Positions 3,295 to 64,000 of a stretch of 64,000 nucleotides of DNA are shown here, piece by piece (position 1 is the first letter of the stretch; each line of letters starts with the position of its first letter). This DNA is from Maricaulis sp. (GTDB taxonomy: Bacteria > Pseudomonadota > Alphaproteobacteria > Caulobacterales > Maricaulaceae). The stretch lies in contig NZ_JAEPOL010000007.1 of assembly GCF_017642925.1 (NCBI RefSeq), positions 62,001 to 126,000 on the forward strand. The letters run 5' to 3'. Both the position numbers and the translations under genes were made by a program. The notes under the pieces are model-generated. The model worked only from the letters and a program-made list of their open reading frames with translations, made no database searches and was not told the origin of the DNA.

Positions 3295-5727
3295 GTGTAT
3301 CGCGTTTTCTATTGCGTGACGGTCGAACACGACCTTCGGCTCGTCGCGGTTGCCGCCCTTTTGTGCGCCTTGTCGGCCTTTGCGGCCGTCGGGATGGCGC
3401 GCCGCGGGCAGTCGGCACCGGACGACCGGCAGTCCTTGTGGCTGATCGTGACCGGATTCGTCACGGGCGTCGGCATCTGGGGCACACACTTCGTCTCCAT
3501 GCTGGCCTATGAAGCGCCGGTGCCGGTCGAGTACGGCCTGTTCGGCACGGTTGGCTCGCTCCTGCTCGCCATCTTCGTGACCAGTTGCGGCTGGACCTAT
3601 GCCGTGCGCATGCCGCAGGCCTATGGCGCCCCGCTGGGCGGGGCTGTCGTCGGCGCCGGGATCGCGACCATGCACTTCATGGGCATCGACGCGATGAATG
3701 TCGGTGCAAACATCGTCTGGGACGCACCGCTGGTACTGGCTTCCATCGGGGCGGGCATGCTGTTTGCGGCGTCGAGCGCAACGGTTCTGGTCCGCGTGCG
3801 CAGCCTGGCAGGGCTGGCCGGCGCGGGTGCACTGCTCGTCCTGGGCGTGGTGAGCCTGCACTTCACGGCCATGACGGCGATGCAGCTGGTGCCGTCCGTT
3901 CCCGGCGTGCTCTACGACGCCGCGGTCTCTTCCAAACTGCTGGCCATTACCGTGGCGCTGGCCGTGGTCTTCGTGATCAGTGTCGGTCTGGCTGCAGCGG
4001 CGCTGGATGTCATTCTGGGCGCGCGCCGCCAGGCCGAGGCCATGCGTCTGCAGGCACTGGCCGATGCGACCTTCGAAGGCATTGCCGTCGTCCGCGAGGG
4101 CCTGGTGCGCGAGGTCAACGAGCCGCTGTGTGAAATGCTCAGCCTGCGGCGCACCGATCTCCTCGACATGCCGGTCAGCAAGCTGGCGCTCGACGCGGCG
4201 GCGATTTCAGCCCTGGCGGATATCGATGACACGCGGCCGGTGACCTGCCGTCTGCGCGGCCGCAATGGCGGGGGGCTGACGGTGCAGGTGCGGGCCCGCA
4301 AGATCGATTTCAGCGGCGAGGCGTCGGACGTGCTGGTTTTCCGGGATGTCTCCGCAGAGGAGCGGGTGCGGGCACGGATGACCCATCTGGCCCACCACGA
4401 CGCCCTGACGGGGCTGCCCAACCGGTTGCGTTTCCGCGAAGCCCTCGACGACGCCATCGAGGAGGCCTGGCAGAACGACACCATGGTCGCAGTGGTGATT
4501 TTCGATCTCGACCGGTTCAAGGAAGTCAATGACGTCCATGGCCATGCGACCGGGGACGCGCTGCTGAAAACGGTCGCCGAACGCATGCTCGATACGCTGC
4601 CGGACAAGGCGATCCCGGCGCGCCTGAGCGGCGATGAATTTGCTGTCCTGCTGCCGGACGTGTCCGGGCATGACGAGGTGCTCGGCACCGCACAGCGCGT
4701 GGTCGACCACATCGGCGTGCCGGTGGTCATCGACCAGTTGACGCTGAATGTCAGTGCGTCCGGCGGGGCGACGGTTTTCCCGCTCGATGGCGAGGATCCG
4801 GACAGGCTGATGAACCAGGCGGATCTGGCCCTCTATCATGCCAAGGGGCAGGGCCGGAACCAGGTGCGCGGCTTCGATCCCCAGCTTGGCCGGATGCTGC
4901 AGGAACGCCGCCTGCTGGAAGCCGACCTGGCCATGGCGATCGAGGACGAACTTCTGGAACTCCACTTCCAGCCCCAGGTGCGTCTCGGCGATGGCGCTAT
5001 CGTCGGTTACGAGGCGCTGGTGCGCTGGAATGACGAGAAGCGGGGCTATGTCTCGCCGGCCGAATTCGTGCAGATCGCCGAGGAAACCGGCCAGATCCTG
5101 AAAATGGGCGAATGGGTGATGCGCGCGGCTTGCCGGGAGGCGGTCAACTGGCCCGAAAGCCGCCGCGTTTCCGTCAATGTCAGCCCGGCGCAGTTCCGCC
5201 AGGGCAATCTCGTGCTCAGTGTCCAGCAGGCGCTGCGGGCGTCCGGTCTCGAACCGGGGCGCCTGGTGGTCGAGATCACAGAGGGTGTTCTCATCGACGA
5301 CGAGGCCCGGGCGCTGGAAGTCATGCAGGCGCTGAAGGATCTCGGCGTGCGTCTGGCGATCGACGATTTCGGGACGGGCTATTCCTCGCTGGCCTATCTG
5401 CGCACCTTCCCCTTCGACAAGATCAAGATCGACCGCTCCTTCATCACAGGGATCGAGGATGATCGCGAAGCACAGATCATCGTCCAGGCGACGATCGATC
5501 TGGCACGGGCGCTGGGTATCAGCGTCGTGGTGGAAGGCGTCGAGACGTTCGGTGAGCTCGCCGCGCTGGGCTGCCAGCCCGACCTCGTGCTGCAGGGCTT
5601 CCTGGTCTCGCGTCCGGTTTCACGCGGGCATGTGCCCGGTTTCGACAGCTTCTCGGCCGAACAGCGCCAGGCCATTGCCGACCAGGTCAATGGCGGCAGC
5701 GGCGACCTGCTGCGCGACCGCGCCTGA
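3295..5727 (+). CDS. MHYT-PAS-GGDEF-EAL cyclic-di-GMP signalling protein
   Basis: An 810-residue inner-membrane sensor. The N-terminus (about 1-245) is a MHYT domain of several helices with repeated motifs [17 protein letters not shown] and [10 protein letters not shown], thought to bind a metal and sense a diatomic gas. A PAS-like part (about 250-355) follows. Next come a diguanylate cyclase domain with SGDEF at 445-449 and a phosphodiesterase domain with YEALVRW (EAL at 573-575), plus the later [10 protein letters not shown] and KIDRSFI motifs. The first Gly of GGDEF is Ser, which is common in this architecture, and I see no RxxD inhibitory site before it. The EAL side looks complete, so net c-di-GMP hydrolysis is likely (inference). 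Start is GTG 3295, preceded by a GAGG element. Confidence 0.93.
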
Positions 5728-5728
5728 T

Positions 5729-6571
5729 CTAGCGCGGCACTTTCTCAGCCTTGCGCGTCGGACCGCCGCGCATCACACGGTACCAGAACAGGATTGCGCC
5801 GATCGGTACGCCAAGCTCCAGTATGACGGGCTCGACCGGGGAGGCATCGACAAAACTGGCGCCGAAGAAGGCGATCTCCAGAAACCGGAAGTAGACGCCG
5901 GCTTCCGATGAGGAAATGCCGGGTGCTACCAGATACCAGGCCTCGCTGGTCCAGTTGAAGCCGAACACCGGGAAGCCGGCGATGATGAAGAGCGGCCACA
6001 GGATACGCCGCTTGATCCGCCGGAAGCGGAAGGTTGCAATCAGCGTGATTACAATAAAGACGAAATTTGCCAGTACGGCTGCCAGGGAAGCCAGGCGGAC
6101 CGGCGTCATCGTCCCGTCCGTGAAGGAAATGCCCGGGTTGGGCTGGAACGCATAGGCGTTGACGTGATGCAACGCCCAGGGCTGTTCGCCGGTTCGGGTA
6201 AAGGTCAGATCGATCCTCACATGCTCGGCTCCGGTCCGCGTGATGTAGACGAGCGATTGGTTGTCGAGTGACTGGCCCCCGACAACCTGCGAACGCGAGC
6301 GATGGGCGCCTGCCAGTTCCGGCGTATCGAGCCATTCACCGGCCGGCATCCCGGCGAGGAACGCGTCAAGCCTGCCCCGGAATTCCTCCGTGTCTGCCCA
6401 GTCCCCGAAATGCGTGATCAGGGCTTCGGTATCCCGACCTTCCATGGCCTCGAGCACGCTCGTGCGCGTCTCGCGCAGGTCTTCGGCGACGAAGTTTTCA
6501 TACAGATCCGACTTGCGGCAGCTGGCCAGACCAGCTGCCAGTACGAGCACCAGGCACACGAACAGGCGCAT
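5729..6571 (-). CDS. Predicted lipoprotein with C-terminal membrane helices, unknown function
   Basis: A 280-residue protein that I do not recognise. It starts MRLFVCLVLVLAAGLASC, a lipoprotein signal with lipobox LASC. A soluble part of ~150 residues follows, with the look of a DUF3887-like or NTF2-like fold (helical start SDLYENFVAEDLRETRTS, then strands such as IDLTFTRTGEQPWALHHV), but this is only an impression. The last ~110 residues contain about three hydrophobic helices. ATG 6571 follows GGGGGATATGGA, a good ribosome site. The gene converges on the c-di-GMP protein, with one base between the stops. Confidence 0.7.
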   Translation of the reverse strand: MRLFVCLVLVLAAGLASCRKSDLYENFVAEDLRETRTSVLEAMEGRDTEALITHFGDWADTEEFRGRLDAFLAGMPAGEWLDTPELAGAHRSRSQVVGGQSLDNQSLVYITRTGAEHVRIDLTFTRTGEQPWALHHVNAYAFQPNPGISFTDGTMTPVRLASLAAVLANFVFIVITLIATFRFRRIKRRILWPLFIIAGFPVFGFNWTSEAWYLVAPGISSSEAGVYFRFLEIAFFGASFVDASPVEPVILELGVPIGAILFWYRVMRGGPTRKAEKVPR

Positions 6572-6645
6572 TCCATATCCCCCAGACTTGGACGAACAAG
6601 GAGCGTGTTTTGCGGCTTGTTTGCAAGCTTTGGTTTTCGTCAGGC

Positions 6646-7800
6646 TCAGAAAAGACTTGGTTGACCGGCTGAGCCGAGAGGGCGTTCGAATTTGGAAAAG
6701 TCGAGTTCGGTGCGCGGTGCGGTCAGGCGGTATCGGCGTATGGCAGCGCGCACGCGGTTGACGATCAGCTCGGCGAGCGGGCCCTGGCCGCGGCCGCGCG
6801 TGCCCCATTGCGGATCGTAGTCACGCCCGCCGCGCATCTGGCGGATCAGCGACATGACGCGTCCGGCCGCATCGGGCCGGGCCGTCTGCAGCCATTCGCG
6901 GAACAGGTCCTTGATCTCGAGCGGCAGGCGCAGCAGCACGTAGGACGCGTTCACCGCGCCGGCCTCGGCGCCGGCCTTGAAGACCGCCTCGATCTCGTTG
7001 TCGTTGAGGGCGGGAATAATCGGCGCCATCATCAGCGTGACCGGCAGGCCGGCCTCCGAGAGACCCCGGATGGCGTCGAGCCGGCGGTGCGGCGCTGCCG
7101 CACGCGGCTCCATGTCCCGGGCCAGACGCCGGTCGAGCGTGGTGACGGAAATCGCACCCTTTGCGAGGCCGTCGGCGGCCATCGGTCCGAGAATGTCCAG
7201 ATCGCGCAGGACAAGCGCCGACTTGGTGATGAAGCTGACCGGGTGCCGGTAGCGGGCGAAGACTTTCAGGATTTCCCGCGTGTGCTGCAGGCGGCGCTCG
7301 ACCGGCTGCCAGGCGTCGGTATTGGCACCGATCACGATCGGTTTGGGCCGATAGCCCGGCCGGTTGAAGAAGGCCTCCAGCAAGGCCGGCCCGTCGGGTT
7401 TGGCGAAGATCACGCTTTCGAAGTCGAGGCCCGGTGAATAGCCCCAATAGGCATGGCTGGGCCGGGCATAGCAGTAGATGCAACCATGCTCGCAGCCGCG
7501 ATAGGGGTTGATCGACTGGTCGAAGGAGATGTCGGGTGAGCTGTTGGTCGCGACGATGGACCGCGACGCATCCTTCAGGATGGTCGTTCCAAGGCGCGGC
7601 GCCGGCGCATCCGCCTCGGTCCATCCGTCATCGAAGGCTTCGCGGGCAAAGGCCTCGTACCGGCCCGATGCGTTAGACCGAGCGCCCCGGCCCCGGACGC
7701 CGGCCCCCGGGGCGGTGGGGGATCCGGCAGAGGGGGCCGCCTGAGGGGCGTTTAGGGCGTAGCCACCTGGGCGCTCGGTCATGAGCGCACTATGACTCAT
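6646..7800 (-). CDS. Radical SAM protein of the PA0069 / SplB-like family
   Basis: A 384-residue radical SAM enzyme. The cluster motif is CEHGCIYCYA (CxxxCxxC) in the context SINPYRGCEHGCIYCYARP, diagnostic for the PA0069 family, which is related to spore photoproduct lyase and is of unknown substrate. Other family blocks are FAKPDGPALLEAFF, IGANTDAWQPVER, TKSALVLRDLDIL and APIIPALNDNEIEAV. The N-terminal ~60 residues are low complexity. ATG 7800 gives the longest frame; ATG 7782 is also possible, and neither has a strong ribosome site. The C-terminus SAGQPSLF is the typical end of this family. Confidence 0.88.
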   Translation of the reverse strand: MSHSALMTERPGGYALNAPQAAPSAGSPTAPGAGVRGRGARSNASGRYEAFAREAFDDGWTEADAPAPRLGTTILKDASRSIVATNSSPDISFDQSINPYRGCEHGCIYCYARPSHAYWGYSPGLDFESVIFAKPDGPALLEAFFNRPGYRPKPIVIGANTDAWQPVERRLQHTREILKVFARYRHPVSFITKSALVLRDLDILGPMAADGLAKGAISVTTLDRRLARDMEPRAAAPHRRLDAIRGLSEAGLPVTLMMAPIIPALNDNEIEAVFKAGAEAGAVNASYVLLRLPLEIKDLFREWLQTARPDAAGRVMSLIRQMRGGRDYDPQWGTRGRGQGPLAELIVNRVRAAIRRYRLTAPRTELDFSKFERPLGSAGQPSLF

Positions 7801-7862
7801 AACGAGAACAAATCAAGAACAAATTTCGGGCCGAACCCGAAAAAAGTGGAAGGCGGGCCGGG

Positions 7863-9023
7863 TCAGCCCACCTTCCGCAGGTCAACCAGGAAGCTGGAGA
7901 TATTGTCTCGCAGCGTGTTCAGGCTGCGTTCCTGGCGCAGGAGGATGTCGGTCGAGCTGATCACCGTTTCGACCGAGGCCTGGGTGGACTCGGTGGCGGA
8001 GTGAACCACACCGATACCGCTGGAAACCTCGCCGGTTCCGGTGGCGGCCTCGTTGACATTGCGGGCGATCTCGCTGGTCGCGGCGCTTTGCTCGGTGACG
8101 GCGGCGGCGATGGCATTGCACGCCGTATTGATGTCCTCGATCGCCGAGGAGATCACGGAATTGGCCGACACCGCGCCGGTCATGGTGCGCTGCAGGTCCT
8201 GGATCTGGTGGCCGATATCGTCCGTCGCCTGGGCGGTCTGGCCGGCCAGCGTCTTTACTTCCTGGGCGACGATGGCGAAGCCCTTGCCGGCCTCGCCCGC
8301 CCGGGCCGCTTCGATGGTCGCGTTCAGCGCGAGCAGGTTGGTCTGGTCGGCAATGGCCTCGATCAGGCGAACGACATCGCCGATCTTGCCGGTCACGCCG
8401 GTCAGGCCCTCGATCGTCGCATTCATCGCCCGCGACTTCTCGACAGCACCCGCGGCAAGGTCAGCCGAGCTGACCACCTGGCGATTGATCTCGGAGATCG
8501 AGGAGGTGAGCTCTTCTGCCGAAGCCGCGATGCTTTGCATGTTCGTGGATGCCTGTTCGGCGCCGGCCGCGGCGCTGGTGCAGCGCTCGGAGGCATCGCT
8601 GGAGCGGGCATAGAGCTGGTCTGCAGTCTCGCGCAGGGAGCCGATCGTGTCCGACACCTTGTCCATGACATCTGCCAGTTGCGCTTCCAGGCCACCGGCC
8701 AGTTCGATGAAACTCTCATGGCGGGATTTGATACCGAAGAGCGTCGTGTTCACGGCCTGCGCGGCATTGCGGAAGGAGCCGACCATGCCGGTTTCCGGGA
8801 TCAGGCGGAAGTGCTTGTTCTTGCGGACATACTCGACGCAGGTCTGGCTTTCGCGCAGATAGGCGTCGGTGCGGTCGATCAGAAGATTGATGGCCAGTTC
8901 CAGCTCCGCGATCTCGGCATCGTCGGACACGCCGATGATACGCTTCTCGAAATCGCCTTCGGCGACGGCACGGACAATGGCGGCAGCGCGGCGGATGGCC
9001 TTGCGTTCCTTGGTGACGAACAT
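7863..9023 (-). CDS. Soluble methyl-accepting chemotaxis protein
   Basis: A 386-residue chemoreceptor with no transmembrane segment. Residues 1-60 resemble a HAMP-like helical region. The long coiled coil contains the signalling hairpin [20 protein letters not shown] followed by [13 protein letters not shown], which contacts CheA and CheW. It lies 11 bases after the stop of the PAS gene at 9035, and its ribosome site GGAGC sits in that gap. The two probably form one receptor unit, with PAS sensing in trans and the MCP module signalling, like Aer split over two genes (inference). No C-terminal CheR-binding pentapeptide is visible. Confidence 0.9.
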
Positions 9024-61033: not shown

Positions 61034-61076
61034 TTGACGGGCTGCGCTACACGTGTAACAACGTGCGACATATGTA
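61034..61076 (+). promoter_or_regulatory. Promoter and candidate BlaI-type operator
   Basis: TTGACG (61034-61039) and TAACAA (61056-61061) form a plausible promoter. Two dyads overlap it: TACACGTGTA (61048-61057) and ACATATGT (61068-61075). Outer GCTACA / TGTAGC arms frame both. BlaI and MecI repressors bind TACA-N-TGTA-like dyads, so autoregulation is likely. A related dyad lies at 63656. Confidence 0.65.
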
Positions 61077-61100
61077 GCGCGACAAGGCTGGAGTAACCGC

Positions 61101-61496
61101 ATGTCTGCATCACCGCCCTCCCAGGCCGAGCTGGCCGTTCTCAAGCATCTCTGGAATGCCGGGCCGCAGAGCGCCCGCGAGGTGCAGGACGCAATCTCGG
61201 CCGATACCGGCTGGTCCTACTCCACCACGCGCACGCTGCTGACACGGATGACCGAGAAGGGGCTCATCCGTCGCAAGGACGTGCACGGCCTGTCGGTGTT
61301 CACGGCGAAGGTCGAGAAGGTCTCGATGATGAGCCGGATGATCCGCGAGTTCGCGGCTAATGTCCTGGACATGGACGGCCCGCTGCCCGGTACCGCTTTC
61401 GCGTCGAGCCGCCTGTTCAGCGAGGAGGAGGCCGCCGCGCTGACCCGCCTGCTCGAACAGGCCGATGAAGCGGAGCGCGGGGAGGACGAGGCATGA
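61101..61496 (+). CDS. BlaI/MecI-family repressor
   Basis: A 131-residue winged-helix repressor. The protein shows AELAVLKHLWNAGPQSAREVQDAI, then GWSYSTTRTLLTRMTEKGLIRRK, typical of BlaI. The region after residue 70 (FTAKVEKVSMMSRMIREFAANV) is the dimerisation and cleavage part of the family. ATG 61101 follows GGAGTAACC. The stop TGA overlaps the next start (ATGA), so the repressor is coupled to the BlaR1-like gene, as in bla operons. No beta-lactamase gene is nearby. Confidence 0.93.
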   Translation: MSASPPSQAELAVLKHLWNAGPQSAREVQDAISADTGWSYSTTRTLLTRMTEKGLIRRKDVHGLSVFTAKVEKVSMMSRMIREFAANVLDMDGPLPGTAFASSRLFSEEEAAALTRLLEQADEAERGEDEA

Positions 61497-63631
61497 TCGG
61501 CGGATTGATTGATGCGCTCCTCATCGGCGGTGCTCTGTCGCTGGTTGCCGGCGGCGCGGCTTGGGTGCTGGCCCGCCTGCAGCGGCGCGGTGAGGCGGAT
61601 ACAGACATCGCACTATGGCGCACGGCACGGCTTGTAGCCCTGCTGCCGGTACCGCTGGCGGCCATGATCTATGCTGTGCCGCAGACCGTGACCACCGGCG
61701 GCGCAGCGCTGGTTTTCGAGCCGCAATTTACCGAAGTGACAGGTCCGTTGCCGCTTGCGGTCGAGGCGGGCGGGTTGGTACTTCCGGCGCTGCCATCGCT
61801 GACGCAAACCGTTCTGGCGCTCTATCTGGCGGGTCTGTTGGTCAGCCTGGGACTGGCGGGCCTGCGCCACCTGGCGCGGCGTCGCATGATCGCGGCCAGC
61901 CGCCCGGCCAGCCGCGAGGAACGCCGGCCGCTCGAGGCGCTTGCCGAGGACATCGGCGTGCGTGCGCCGGAGATGCGGGTCGGGCCCGACACGGCTTCGC
62001 CCATCCTGACCGGCTGGCGCGGTGTCGTGCTGGTTCCGGCGGCGATGCTGGCGCGCGCCGACGCGCTGCGCTTTGCCCTGGCCCACGAGCTGACCCATCT
62101 GCGCCGCGGCGACGAGCGGGATCGCCTGGTCGGTGCCGCGCTGATTGCACTCTTCTGGTTCAACCTGCCGCTCCGCTGGATCGAGCGGGAGCTTAATGCG
62201 GCGCGGGAAATCGCCTGCGACCGCGACACGCTGGAGGCGCTGGGGGGCGCACGGCGCAAGGCCTATGCGGCCGCGCTGATCGAAACCATGCGGATCGCGG
62301 CGCCGCCGGCGTCTGCTTTCGGCCCTCACGACAGGAGACATCGTGAAATGCGGATCAAGGCCATCATGACTTCAACCGCCAGCCGGCGCGGCCGCGCGGC
62401 CTGGCTGGCTGCCACAATCCTCGCTGCCGGACTGCCGGTCGCCGGTGCCCAGGCGCTGATCACCGAACGGCGCGTCGTCGCCGAGCCGGCCGAGCATGTC
62501 GCGCCCGAACAGGACGCGCAGGCGCCGATACAGACCGCCTTCGCGGCCCAGCAGGACGAGGACTGGCAGGCCTCCATCGGCCAGCTCTCTGCAATCGTCG
62601 ATGCGCCCGAGAGTTCAGCTCATGACCGGGCGACTGCGCTGCAGATGCGCGGCCGGGCGCACTATGAACTCGGGCAGGTCGAGGCGGCGATTGCCGATTG
62701 GCAAAGCGCGATCGACACGGGCGCCATGGATGAAGATGGCAACCGTAATATGCGCATCAATATCAGCCAGCTGATGATCGCCAATGGCGATGCCGAGGCC
62801 GGCGCGGAAGCGCTTGAGGCTGCGCTCGGCGAGGATGAGCCCGATCTGCGCTTCATGCGGATGTTGGCCCAGGCCTATGGCCAGGCCGGCCGCTTCGAGG
62901 ACGGTCTGGGTTATGCCCGGGCGGTCTATTCCGACGATCCGGCCGAGGGCAATTTCCACCTGCTCTACTATTATCTCCAGGAATTGGGGATGGAACAGGA
63001 CCTGGCTGAACTGACGGCGTTGCAGGAAGAGCGCGGGACGTCCGGCGAACCCAAGATCAATCGCCGCGAGGCCCCGGTCGCACCGGTGGTGGCCGAGCCC
63101 TCGCCCGAGCCGCATCCGGCGCCGCGTGTAGAGCCGGCCTCCGAGCCCAGCCCGGTGCGCCAGGTCCGTCCGGCCCCGCAGGCCGAACCCCGCGCCGAGC
63201 CGCGTCCTGTCATGGCCCCGGCCCCGTCGCTGACCCACCGCGTTGCCCATGGCCGGATCAGCAGCCGCTATGGCGATCGTCCGGCCCGTCCGGCGGGCGC
63301 CCAGCAATTCCATCATGGCGTCGATATCGCGGCCGAGCGCGGCACGCCGATCGTGGCACCGGGACCGGGCGTTGTCGTTCATGCCGCGGCCGGGTTCAAC
63401 GGTGAGGCCGCCTGGGGCAATACCGTCGCGATCGATCACGGCAATGGCTGGCAGACGGTCTATGCCCATATGGAAGGGTTTGACGTCTCGGTCGGCGACC
63501 GCGTGTCGTCCGGCCAGCAGATCGGCCGTGTCGGCTCCACCGGCCGCTCGACCGGACCCCACGTCCATGTCGAGCTGCACCAGAACGGCCAGCGGATCGA
63601 TCCGGCCGAGTATCTTCCGGGCTTGCGCTAG
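61493..63631 (+). CDS. BlaR1-like M56 protease fused to TPR-like and M23 endopeptidase domains
   Basis: A 712-residue membrane protein. Residues 1-310 are BlaR1-like: three or four membrane helices and the M56 zinc motif AHELTHLRRGDE (HExxH), with the third ligand in REIACD. A further helix (AAWLAATILAAGLPVAGAQ) leads into the periplasm. Residues ~345-510 are TPR-like repeats (DWQASIGQLSAIVDAPESSA, ALQMRGRAHYELGQVEAAIA). A Pro-Ala-Glu linker (~525-580) precedes a complete M23/LytM domain (HHGVDIAAERGTPIVAPGPG, HVHVELHQNG). The usual BlaR1 C-terminal penicillin-binding sensor is absent. The M23 domain could cut or sense peptidoglycan (inference). Confidence 0.88.
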   Translation: MIGGLIDALLIGGALSLVAGGAAWVLARLQRRGEADTDIALWRTARLVALLPVPLAAMIYAVPQTVTTGGAALVFEPQFTEVTGPLPLAVEAGGLVLPALPSLTQTVLALYLAGLLVSLGLAGLRHLARRRMIAASRPASREERRPLEALAEDIGVRAPEMRVGPDTASPILTGWRGVVLVPAAMLARADALRFALAHELTHLRRGDERDRLVGAALIALFWFNLPLRWIERELNAAREIACDRDTLEALGGARRKAYAAALIETMRIAAPPASAFGPHDRRHREMRIKAIMTSTASRRGRAAWLAATILAAGLPVAGAQALITERRVVAEPAEHVAPEQDAQAPIQTAFAAQQDEDWQASIGQLSAIVDAPESSAHDRATALQMRGRAHYELGQVEAAIADWQSAIDTGAMDEDGNRNMRINISQLMIANGDAEAGAEALEAALGEDEPDLRFMRMLAQAYGQAGRFEDGLGYARAVYSDDPAEGNFHLLYYYLQELGMEQDLAELTALQEERGTSGEPKINRREAPVAPVVAEPSPEPHPAPRVEPASEPSPVRQVRPAPQAEPRAEPRPVMAPAPSLTHRVAHGRISSRYGDRPARPAGAQQFHHGVDIAAERGTPIVAPGPGVVVHAAAGFNGEAAWGNTVAIDHGNGWQTVYAHMEGFDVSVGDRVSSGQQIGRVGSTGRSTGPHVHVELHQNGQRIDPAEYLPGLR

Positions 63632-63703: not shown

Positions 63704-64000
63704 ATGCCATTGGCGCATCATTCATGTCACACAGTTTTACTCGGCACGCTGGGCCTGCTGGCGGCCTGCGCGCAGACACCGCGGCCCAATGAGACAGAGG
63801 CGACGTTTCCGGCCGGGATCGCCGTGCCCGGCGCGGAAACCGGGGAAGCCGCGCCCGCGGCAGCGGCGGGGAGTGTCCTGTTCAGCTATCCCGTCGTGTC
63901 CGGCATCGTCTATTCCGGGTTCGGCGCCGCGCGCAGCAGCGGTCGGTATCATTCCGGCATCGACATCTCCACGCAGTACGGAACCCCGGTCCGGGCGGCC
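63704..64000 (+). CDS. M23-family endopeptidase lipoprotein, N-terminal part
   Basis: The first 99 codons run off the window edge. The start MPLAHHSCHTVLLGTLGLLA followed by AC shows a lipoprotein signal with lipobox LAAC. After a low-complexity linker (ETGEAAPAAAAGS) a M23 domain begins: VLFSYPVVSGIVYSGFGAAR, then RYHSGIDISTQYGTPVRAA with the HxxxD zinc motif. The HxH part would be outside. It follows the BlaR1-M23 gene by 72 bases with its own dyad, so it is likely in the same regulon. Confidence 0.85.
   Translation, partial: MPLAHHSCHTVLLGTLGLLAACAQTPRPNETEATFPAGIAVPGAETGEAAPAAAAGSVLFSYPVVSGIVYSGFGAARSSGRYHSGIDISTQYGTPVRAA

What the first reader, a model, noticed from the sequence alone, without database searches (positions are those of the whole stretch)
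61101..63631. BlaI-type repressor coupled to a BlaR1-like protease carrying an M23 peptidoglycan hydrolase domain
Seen: M56 HELTH site, membrane helices, TPR-like repeats and a complete M23 domain in one 712-residue chain, overlapping a BlaI-type gene by ATGA. BlaR1 usually ends in a beta-lactam-binding sensor; here that is replaced by an endopeptidase module. Inference: the M23 part senses or edits peptidoglycan and controls repressor cleavage through the M56 site. I do not know of this fusion as a described system.
Basis: partly seen in the sequence, partly recalled or inferred. Interest (0 to 1): 0.82.

Follow-up and report, generated by a model that had tools for sequence, protein, structure and literature searches.

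The report
BlaR1-like receptor with cell-wall-hydrolase sensor
In a Maricaulis-like marine bacterium, a receptor related to the one that switches on penicillin resistance has a cell-wall-cutting domain where the penicillin sensor should be, which suggests that the cell uses it to monitor its own wall rather than the drug.

Summary
blaI (61101-61496) overlaps by ATGA a 712-residue protein (61493-63631) with predicted membrane helices, a complete M56/BlaR1 protease, a helical-repeat segment and a complete M23 domain. It is no one-off: 17 of 19 genomes of the genus (Maricaulis) and at least 40 of 120 sampled genomes of the order carry such a fusion.

Further results: (1) BlaR1's protease residues are kept in 51 of 51 fusions, the scissile-bond phenylalanine in 51 of 51 partner repressors and 49 of 51 receptor loops; the receptor very probably cuts its BlaI. 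(2) Two tandem operators before blaI are the only exact sites in the 3.6-Mb genome; the main target is probably the operon itself. (3) M23 is intact in the window's lineage, but an active-site histidine is replaced, zinc ligands kept, in 19 of 51 fusions, including 17 of 17 in one family; the free M23 proteins that could be scored in six such genomes keep it.

Best reading: a BlaR1-type receptor sensing the wall through M23, probably also an enzyme here. One review names the architecture; I found no description of the system.

The parts
61046..61059 (.). Operator dyad 1, GCTACACGTGTAAC on the + strand
   Evidence: Matches GYKACANNTGTAGC exactly on the - strand, with one mismatch on the + strand; the tandem pair lies at the blaI promoter in 18 of 19 genus genomes
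61065..61078 (.). Operator dyad 2, GCGACATATGTAGC on the + strand
   Evidence: Exact match on the + strand; with dyad 1 the only exact sites in the 3.6-Mb genome
61101..61496 (+). blaI-type repressor gene (131 aa); predicted cleavage bond A99-F100 at 61395-61400
   Evidence: Penicillinase_R 76.1 bits; ungapped MecI alignment, offset 2, up to residue 88, extended by me to put F100 on Phe102; Phe in 51 of 51 fusion partners
61493..63631 (+). M56-repeat-M23 receptor gene (712 aa), start overlapping blaI stop by ATGA
62084..62098 (+). M56 zinc site HELTH (residues 198-202); further residues D207, E239, D243, Y258
   Evidence: Present in 51 of 51 fusions; numbers are those of BlaR1 minus 3 in the alignment; roles
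62315..62320 (+). Predicted autocleavage bond A275-F276 of the receptor
   Evidence: Phe in 49 of 51 fusions, Leu in 2; compared with Ser283-Phe284 of BlaR1; placing inferred
62396..62464 (+). Fourth predicted membrane helix (residues 302-324), which would put the C-terminal part in the periplasm
   Evidence: AlphaFold model, modest confidence there (pLDDT about 56); arginine-rich stretch before it
62519..63040 (+). Helical (TPR-like) repeat segment, residues 343-516
   Evidence: Model; 38% identity to a TPR protein of the same genome; whole segment only in the window's protein and its closest relative among the 19 aligned, with a likely remnant in L014
63245..63628 (+). M23 peptidase domain, residues 585-712; His659 codon at 63467-63469
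   Evidence: 116.4 bits; all five active-site residues present; dN/dS 0.04
63704..64000 (+). M23 lipoprotein gene, possibly same operon (191 aa; runs on to about 64279)
   Evidence: a free M23 gene follows in 5 of 17 genus genomes with the fusion

Best explanation
A one-step BlaI/BlaR1-type envelope sensor. The membrane protein reads the state of the wall with a periplasmic M23 domain and passes the signal to its cytoplasmic M56 protease. The protease cuts BlaI at A99-F100 (and itself at A275-F276). Cut BlaI leaves two tandem operators, and the operon blaI / M56-M23 / M23 lipoprotein is expressed. Shown by sequence: gene order, domains, operator-like dyads, conservation of both catalytic sites here. 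Inferred from BlaR1 homology: membrane topology, BlaI cleavage, derepression. Inferred with less support: that the M23 ligand is peptidoglycan or a wall-bound protein, that its occupancy is the signal, and that the lipoprotein gene is co-transcribed. In the window's lineage the M23 domain is probably also an active endopeptidase; in one related family it has probably become a binding-only sensor.
For: M56: H198, E199, H202, D207, E239, D243, Y258 in 51 of 51 fusions, the residues described for BlaR1 (PMC9834060, passages); profile match to BlaR1 E 7e-8. Predicted cleavage-site Phe in 51 of 51 BlaI and 49 of 51 receptors; across 79 pairs the two positions go together (BlaI Phe, 56: receptor 54 Phe, 2 Leu; BlaI Leu, 23: receptor 0 Phe, 19 Leu, 1 Met, 3 gaps). 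Operators: sole exact sites in the genome; in the genus 16 of 18 exact hits lie at this promoter; a dyad scoring 10 or more of 12 lies before 30 of 32 further fusion partners. Sensor role: the protease site never varies while the M23 site does (His659-equivalent lost in 20 of 51; zinc ligands kept in 50 of 51), with at least 5 changes on the M56 tree, the degenerate Maricaulis copies included. Control: in six genomes of the Gln family 5 of 5 scored fused M23 have Gln and 21 of 21 scored other loci have His (4 others unscored). Genes next door differ by lineage (RND transporter in 12 of 14 of one family, M23 in some), as expected of a sensing module.
Against: No ligand, cleavage or expression data. 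All five M23 residues are intact in this species, and M23 is the most constrained domain between the two closest species, which fits an enzyme as well as a sensor. Gln at the His260 position is not proof of inactivity: the review says this His 'might participate' in water activation. The Phe/Leu covariation follows clade lines, so it may reflect one or two events. The operator type and the Phe are not tied to the M23 fusion as such: five non-fused pairs of family f3 have both. The tree is a quick search with long branches, and counts of changes cannot tell loss from gain.
Confidence: 0.55

Rival explanations
1. Autoregulated wall hydrolase. The M23 domain is the working enzyme; M56 and BlaI only set how much of it and of the neighbouring M23 lipoprotein is made, a feedback loop on hydrolase level.
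For: Intact M23 residues in 17 of 19 genus genomes; M23 dN/dS 0.04; the exact operators mark only this promoter in the own genome; a second M23 gene follows directly.
Against: In one family the H659-equivalent is replaced in 17 of 17 fusions with the receptor kept; in another family the next gene is an RND transporter in 12 of 14; the genome has 8 M23 domains, this one included, so hydrolase supply need not depend on it; only 5 of 17 genus genomes have the second M23 gene.
Confidence: 0.25
2. Muropeptide route. The M23 domain (and the lipoprotein) releases wall peptides that enter the cytoplasm and inactivate BlaI directly, as proposed for Bacillus licheniformis.
For: A peptidoglycan dipeptide dissociates the B. 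licheniformis BlaI-operator complex (PMC3305447, passages).
Against: The binding was in the millimolar range (about 2 and 8 mM for MecI); direct BlaI cutting by BlaR1 was shown later; fusions with a probably impaired M23 keep the M56 residues and the BlaI Phe.
Confidence: 0.1
3. Protein-docking sensor. The M23 domain binds a division or amidase protein, as the LytM domains of EnvC, NlpD and DipM do, and reports on division rather than on peptidoglycan itself.
For: Degenerate M23 folds act as protein hubs (PMC9662197, passages); Foldseek has DipM and EnvC LytM domains at ranks 2, 5 and 6.
Against: Zinc ligands are kept in 50 of 51 fusions, more than mere docking would need.
Confidence: 0.1

Closest known systems
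BlaI/BlaR1 and MecI/MecR1 of Staphylococcus aureus
   Same: Gene pair, repressor family, M56 receptor with the same protease residues and a Phe at both probable cleavage sites
   Different: No beta-lactam-binding domain; an M23 domain instead. No beta-lactamase gene next to it in the stretch read; apparently autoregulated, with an M23 lipoprotein gene behind it
BlaI/BlaR1 of Bacillus licheniformis (peptidoglycan coactivator model)
   Same: A link between a BlaI system and wall fragments (PMC3305447, passages)
   Different: There the wall fragment acts on BlaI in the cytoplasm; here a wall-hydrolase fold is built into the receptor
Mycobacterial BlaI (Rv1846c)
   Same: A BlaI regulator tied to division and wall (PMC12565901, abstract and outline seen)
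   Different: I did not examine the mycobacterial receptor; I know of no M23 fusion of it (recalled)
M23/LytM proteins (LytM, ShyA, MepM, EnvC, DipM)
   Same: M23 fold and, in this species, the five active-site residues
   Different: As far as I recall these are free or division-tethered proteins without an M56 protease
M23+M56 architecture in an InterPro survey
   Same: PMC9662197 names M56 peptidase among the other catalytic domains found with M23, together under 1% of hits (passages)
   Different: No repressor, operator, distribution or mechanism in the passages seen

Membership tests
BlaI/MecI repressors | Penicillinase_R domain with winged helix | tested here: met
   76.1 bits, residues 7-120; PDB match to MecI, E 8e-6
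BlaI/MecI repressors | TACA/TGTA-type inverted-repeat operator at its own promoter | tested here: met
   Two tandem dyads, only exact sites in the genome; the BlaI operator consensus is recalled; binding not tested
BlaI/MecI repressors | Phe at P1' of the cleavage site | tested here: met
   F100; Phe in 51 of 51 partners of fusions; placing by ungapped extension
BlaR1/M56 receptors | HExxH ... ExxxD gluzincin site plus Asp210 and Tyr261 equivalents | tested here: met
   All present here and in 51 of 51 fusions (residues)
BlaR1/M56 receptors | Four membrane helices with C-terminal domain outside | tested here: inconclusive
   Predicted helices 2-31, 39-61, 101-135, 302-324; topology not measured
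BlaR1/M56 receptors | Cuts its repressor | not testable with these tools
   Needs a cleavage assay
BlaR1 beta-lactam sensor (NCBIfam blaR1_generic) | C-terminal penicillin-binding sensor domain | tested here: not met
   Only residues 102-269 match: 43.6 bits of a 400-bit cut-off; C-terminus is M23
M23 peptidases | HxxxD and HxH zinc motifs plus the His about 30 residues before HxH | tested here: met
   H607, D611, H659, H690, H692; motif roles
M23 peptidases | Endopeptidase activity on peptidoglycan | not testable with these tools
   Needs zymography

The most novel reading that the evidence does not exclude
A separate class of BlaR1-type receptors that read peptidoglycan itself: a hydrolase fold was turned into the sensor, kept its zinc, and in one family dropped a catalytic histidine, while the cytoplasmic protease and the repressor's cleavage site stayed fixed. 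The output was re-wired by lineage (M23 enzymes, an RND transporter).
Probability: 0.45. Interest if true: 0.8.

Novelty: new variant of a known kind. Interest (0 to 1): 0.62.

Why it matters
BlaR1 systems are known as drug sensors. A conserved group, spread over three families of an order, with a wall-hydrolase domain as sensor would show how this receptor type can watch the wall directly, in Gram-negative bacteria. It gives a simple test bed: one repressor, one operator pair, one receptor with two zinc sites that can be switched off separately. It also offers a natural series of enzyme-like and probably enzyme-dead sensors for asking how a hydrolase becomes a receptor.

Tried and rejected
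Frame or fusion artefact: rejected; the same architecture in one frame occurs in 51 distinct fusions.

Plasmid-borne element: no plasmid record covers 80% of the protein in one place; 906 records match in part, and the 20 rows listed all cover only the M23 end.

Wider regulon: besides the two operators, one search lists 12 further places with one mismatch. I looked at 8 of the 12: 4 lie inside genes; 4 lie between genes, among them a symmetric dyad before a histidine kinase gene on contig 31, one between two divergent genes on contig 6 and one before a gene on contig 14. The tandem pattern with 2-3 mismatches also hits elsewhere in 9 of 19 genus genomes, once at the same kind of place in the two closest species (contig 32 here). 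In the genus 2 of 18 exact hits lie elsewhere (G005, G010), not examined. Further targets are thus possible but unproven.

Fusions outside the order: a class-wide search at E 1e-15 found the M56 group in 2 of 289 genomes, both of this order. It scored at most 7 candidates per genome, so independent fusions elsewhere are not excluded.

Signal-peptidase site after helix 4: AxA occurs in 48 of 51 fusions but also in 25 of 29 non-fused M56 proteins, so it does not discriminate; dropped. (xxA-Q: 42 of 51 against 4 of 29.)

Second structure aligner: library not available. Literature: seven searches; their listings showed no description of an M56-M23 receptor system. I opened four papers only, in passages or abstract.
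Full report
What is there. blaI (61101-61496) and the 712-residue receptor (61493-63631) overlap by ATGA. Pfam gives Penicillinase_R for the first, Peptidase_M56 and a full-length Peptidase_M23 for the second, all far over the cut-offs; TPR hits are below theirs. The AlphaFold model (19 sequences, mean pLDDT 72, pTM 0.44) shows helices 2-31, 39-61, 101-135 and 302-324 (the last at modest confidence), the protease between the third and fourth, a helical-repeat region 343-516 (confident at about 351-450), a disordered proline-rich linker 518-575 and the M23 fold. Foldseek finds M23 domains first and also cryo-EM BlaR1 8exs (E 1e-6, TM 0.28/0.35, rmsd 14.9). The single sequence finds only M23 chains in the PDB; a profile of the M56 part finds BlaR1 (E 7e-8). 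An M23 lipoprotein gene follows after 72 bp and runs out of the window (lipobox by eye). Upstream, a divergent Elm1-domain gene (PF06258) borders the promoter.

Where it occurs. The closest named record is a Maricaulis MAG (93% identity). All 19 genomes of the genus match the protein. In 17 of 19 one frame holds HExxH and a complete M23 motif set. A blaI-type start motif precedes it in 17 of 17, and the ORF calls overlap it by 1 or 4 bases in 16 of 17 (in L009 the receptor ORF was called too long). The other two genomes, G009 and G010, carry two tandem blaI-M56 pairs instead: one M56 protein ends in a degenerate M23 (in G010 Pfam still sees 44.6 bits, but the HxGxD and HxH motifs are gone), the other has no M23. 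In the order, 61 of 120 genomes match the M56 profile at E 1e-20, with 72 matches listed. I scanned 70 of the 72 with profiles built here: 40, in 40 genomes, are fused to M23, each with a blaI-type gene in the locus (in one, L083, the M23 match is weak and its motifs are gone). Of the two not scanned, one is a G010 copy read and one (G039) was not fetched, so 40 of 120 is a lower bound. Eight of the 40 repeat genomes already in my alignment and were dropped (seven by genome handle, L077 by its match to the Hyphobacterium row), which leaves 19 + 32 = 51 distinct fusions. By family code these are 17 in f2, 14 in f5 and 20 in the window's family f1 (two of the 20 are named records, Hyphobacterium and Woodsholea, whose code I assumed). 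The five f3 matches are not fused. A class-wide search found the group in 2 of 289 genomes, both of this order.

The protease and its targets. BlaR1's gluzincin signature is H201ExxH and E242xxxD; [quoted passage not shown] Here the residues are 198, 199, 202, 239, 243, 207 and 258, a constant offset of 3 in the alignment, and they are present in 51 of 51 fusions and 30 of 30 non-fused M56 proteins of the order. BlaR1 cuts BlaI between Asn101 and Phe102 and itself between Ser283 and Phe284, and Phe at P1' of BlaI is almost invariant. The MecI alignment is ungapped with offset 2 up to residue 88, so window F100 falls on Phe102; this last step is an extension of mine. F100 is Phe in 51 of 51 BlaI partners of fusions, and the receptor loop residue F276 is Phe in 49 of 51, Leu in 2. 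In the 28 non-fused pairs compared, 5 BlaI have Phe and 23 have Leu; their receptors have Phe in 5 of 5 and in 0 of 23 (19 Leu, 1 Met, 3 gaps). The two positions vary together, as expected if one protease site cuts both, but along clade lines.

The operators. Two dyads, 61046-61059 and 61065-61078, lie just before blaI. The pattern GYKACANNTGTAGC has two exact matches in the 3.6-Mb genome, these two. The tool's control, the pattern read backwards, is commoner (one mismatch: 102 and 115 against 10 and 8; exact: 6 and 7 against 1 and 1), so base composition does not explain the sites, though it is no like-for-like expectation. In the genus, 16 of 18 exact hits, in 14 of 19 genomes, lie at this promoter by their coordinates, and the tandem pattern with up to 3 mismatches is found there in 18 of 19; the nineteenth, G006, has a 4-base spacer. 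For the 32 further fusions, a dyad scoring 10 or more of 12 lies before blaI in 30 (L113 and L114 fail); shuffles of the same stretches reached each of those 30 scores in at most 2% of cases. For non-fused partners this is 7 of 28, and five of the seven are the f3 pairs whose BlaI also has Phe; most others show, by eye, an ACTACA...GTAGT type. So operator type and Phe mark a BlaI subgroup that includes but is not confined to the M23 fusions. In the own genome the repressor most probably controls its own operon.

The M23 domain. In this species all five residues are there: zinc ligands H607, D611, H692, and H659 and H690, the positions thought to act on the water (roles from PMC9662197, passages; H659 corresponds to LytM His260 by position, about 30 residues before HxH). 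Between the window's protein and its closest relative, M23 is the most constrained part (98% identity, dN/dS 0.04; M56 0.12; repeat segment 0.22). Across 51 fusions 31 have the complete set; 17 have Gln, 1 Arg and 1 Ser at the H659 position with the other four kept; 1 has lost all. Family f2 has lost this His in 17 of 17 and f5 in 3 of 14; the 20 fusions counted in f1 all keep it, besides the degenerate copies of G009 and G010. On an M56 tree of 84 rows the state changes at least 5 times (quick search, long branches flagged, direction not inferable). Control: in six f2 genomes, 30 of 47 M23 matches became loci. Five loci were scored on the fused domain: 5 of 5 Gln. Of the 25 others 21 scored His and 4 were not scored by the script (one of these shows His by eye). 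Two of the 21 are one gene, because the locus of the sixth fused domain (G081, Gln) was scored on its free neighbour. The 17 weaker matches were not looked at. Within this limit the replacement is a feature of the receptor-bound domain and not of M23 proteins in those genomes.

Neighbouring genes. A free M23 gene follows the fusion in 5 of 17 genus genomes (the flank scanned in G012 was short) and in 2 of 17 f2 genomes; both f2 genes keep their His. In f5 the next gene, on the same strand 73-214 bp on by ORF call, is an AcrB-type RND transporter in 12 of 14 by its shared N-terminus, with two checked by Pfam. In 12 of 17 f2 genomes the next gene called is on the other strand.

Mechanism. The M56 protease and the cleavage-site residues are constant in the fusions and an operator dyad nearly so; the M23 active site, the repeat or linker segment and the downstream genes vary. 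That is the pattern of a sensor-transducer with changeable input detail and output. I therefore favour sensing by the M23 domain as the shared function, with enzyme activity likely as well in Maricaulis. Shown: sequences, conservation, operator-like dyads. Inferred: topology, cleavage, ligand, signal. Rivals are an autoregulated hydrolase, the muropeptide route of B. licheniformis (PMC3305447, passages) and a protein-docking sensor.

Novelty. PMC9662197 lists M56 among the catalytic domains found with M23 and adds that a role of M56 in peptidoglycan cleavage has not been shown (passages). The listings of seven searches in an open-access library of 5.39 million papers showed no description of the system; most subscription papers are missing from it. 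I also recall, from no call, that NCBI uses a product name joining M23 and M56. I file it as a new variant of a known kind.

Noticed in passing
L046 (G010) 3886-8560 and L047 (G009): Two tandem blaI-M56 pairs; one receptor ends in a degenerate M23, the other in an acidic region without M23. Receptor duplication with loss of the M23 site.
   Followed up: partly
L005:4235-6282 (own genome, contig 13): A second BlaI-M56 pair whose receptor carries ankyrin repeats in place of a sensor; the next gene (L005:2614-4167) is a serine beta-lactamase-family protein.
   Followed up: partly
window 62519-63040; L045:2579-5798: The receptor's repeat segment is related (31-38% identity) to two TPR proteins that sit beside ExbB/TonB-like genes (by eye); among 19 aligned fusions the whole segment occurs only in the window's species and its closest relative.
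   Followed up: partly
L142-L147, L149, L150, L160-L163: In family f5 an AcrB-type RND transporter gene follows the M56-M23 gene in 12 of 14 genomes, a hint that wall state may control efflux there.
   Followed up: partly
L084, L089, L113, L132 and similar long fusions: Some fusions of families f5 and f2 have long charged, coiled-coil-like tails after the M23 domain; two f2 examples (L097, L106) end in a region that looks like a TonB C-terminal domain (by eye).
   Followed up: no
L059:2419 (own genome, contig 31): A symmetric dyad GCTACATTTGTAGG lies about 60 bp before a histidine kinase gene followed by a response-regulator-like gene; possible second target.
   Followed up: partly
L060:2013 (own genome, contig 6): A one-mismatch dyad lies between two divergent genes, one of them TetR-like by eye.
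   Followed up: no
L069:2246-2278 (own genome, contig 32) and G018:C14:5761: A dyad present in the two closest species; here near the start of a 642-aa ORF; regulator unknown.
   Followed up: no
L004:4886-8374: After the M23 lipoprotein come a PepSY-like membrane protein and a TonB-dependent receptor gene (by eye), probably a separate uptake unit.
   Followed up: no
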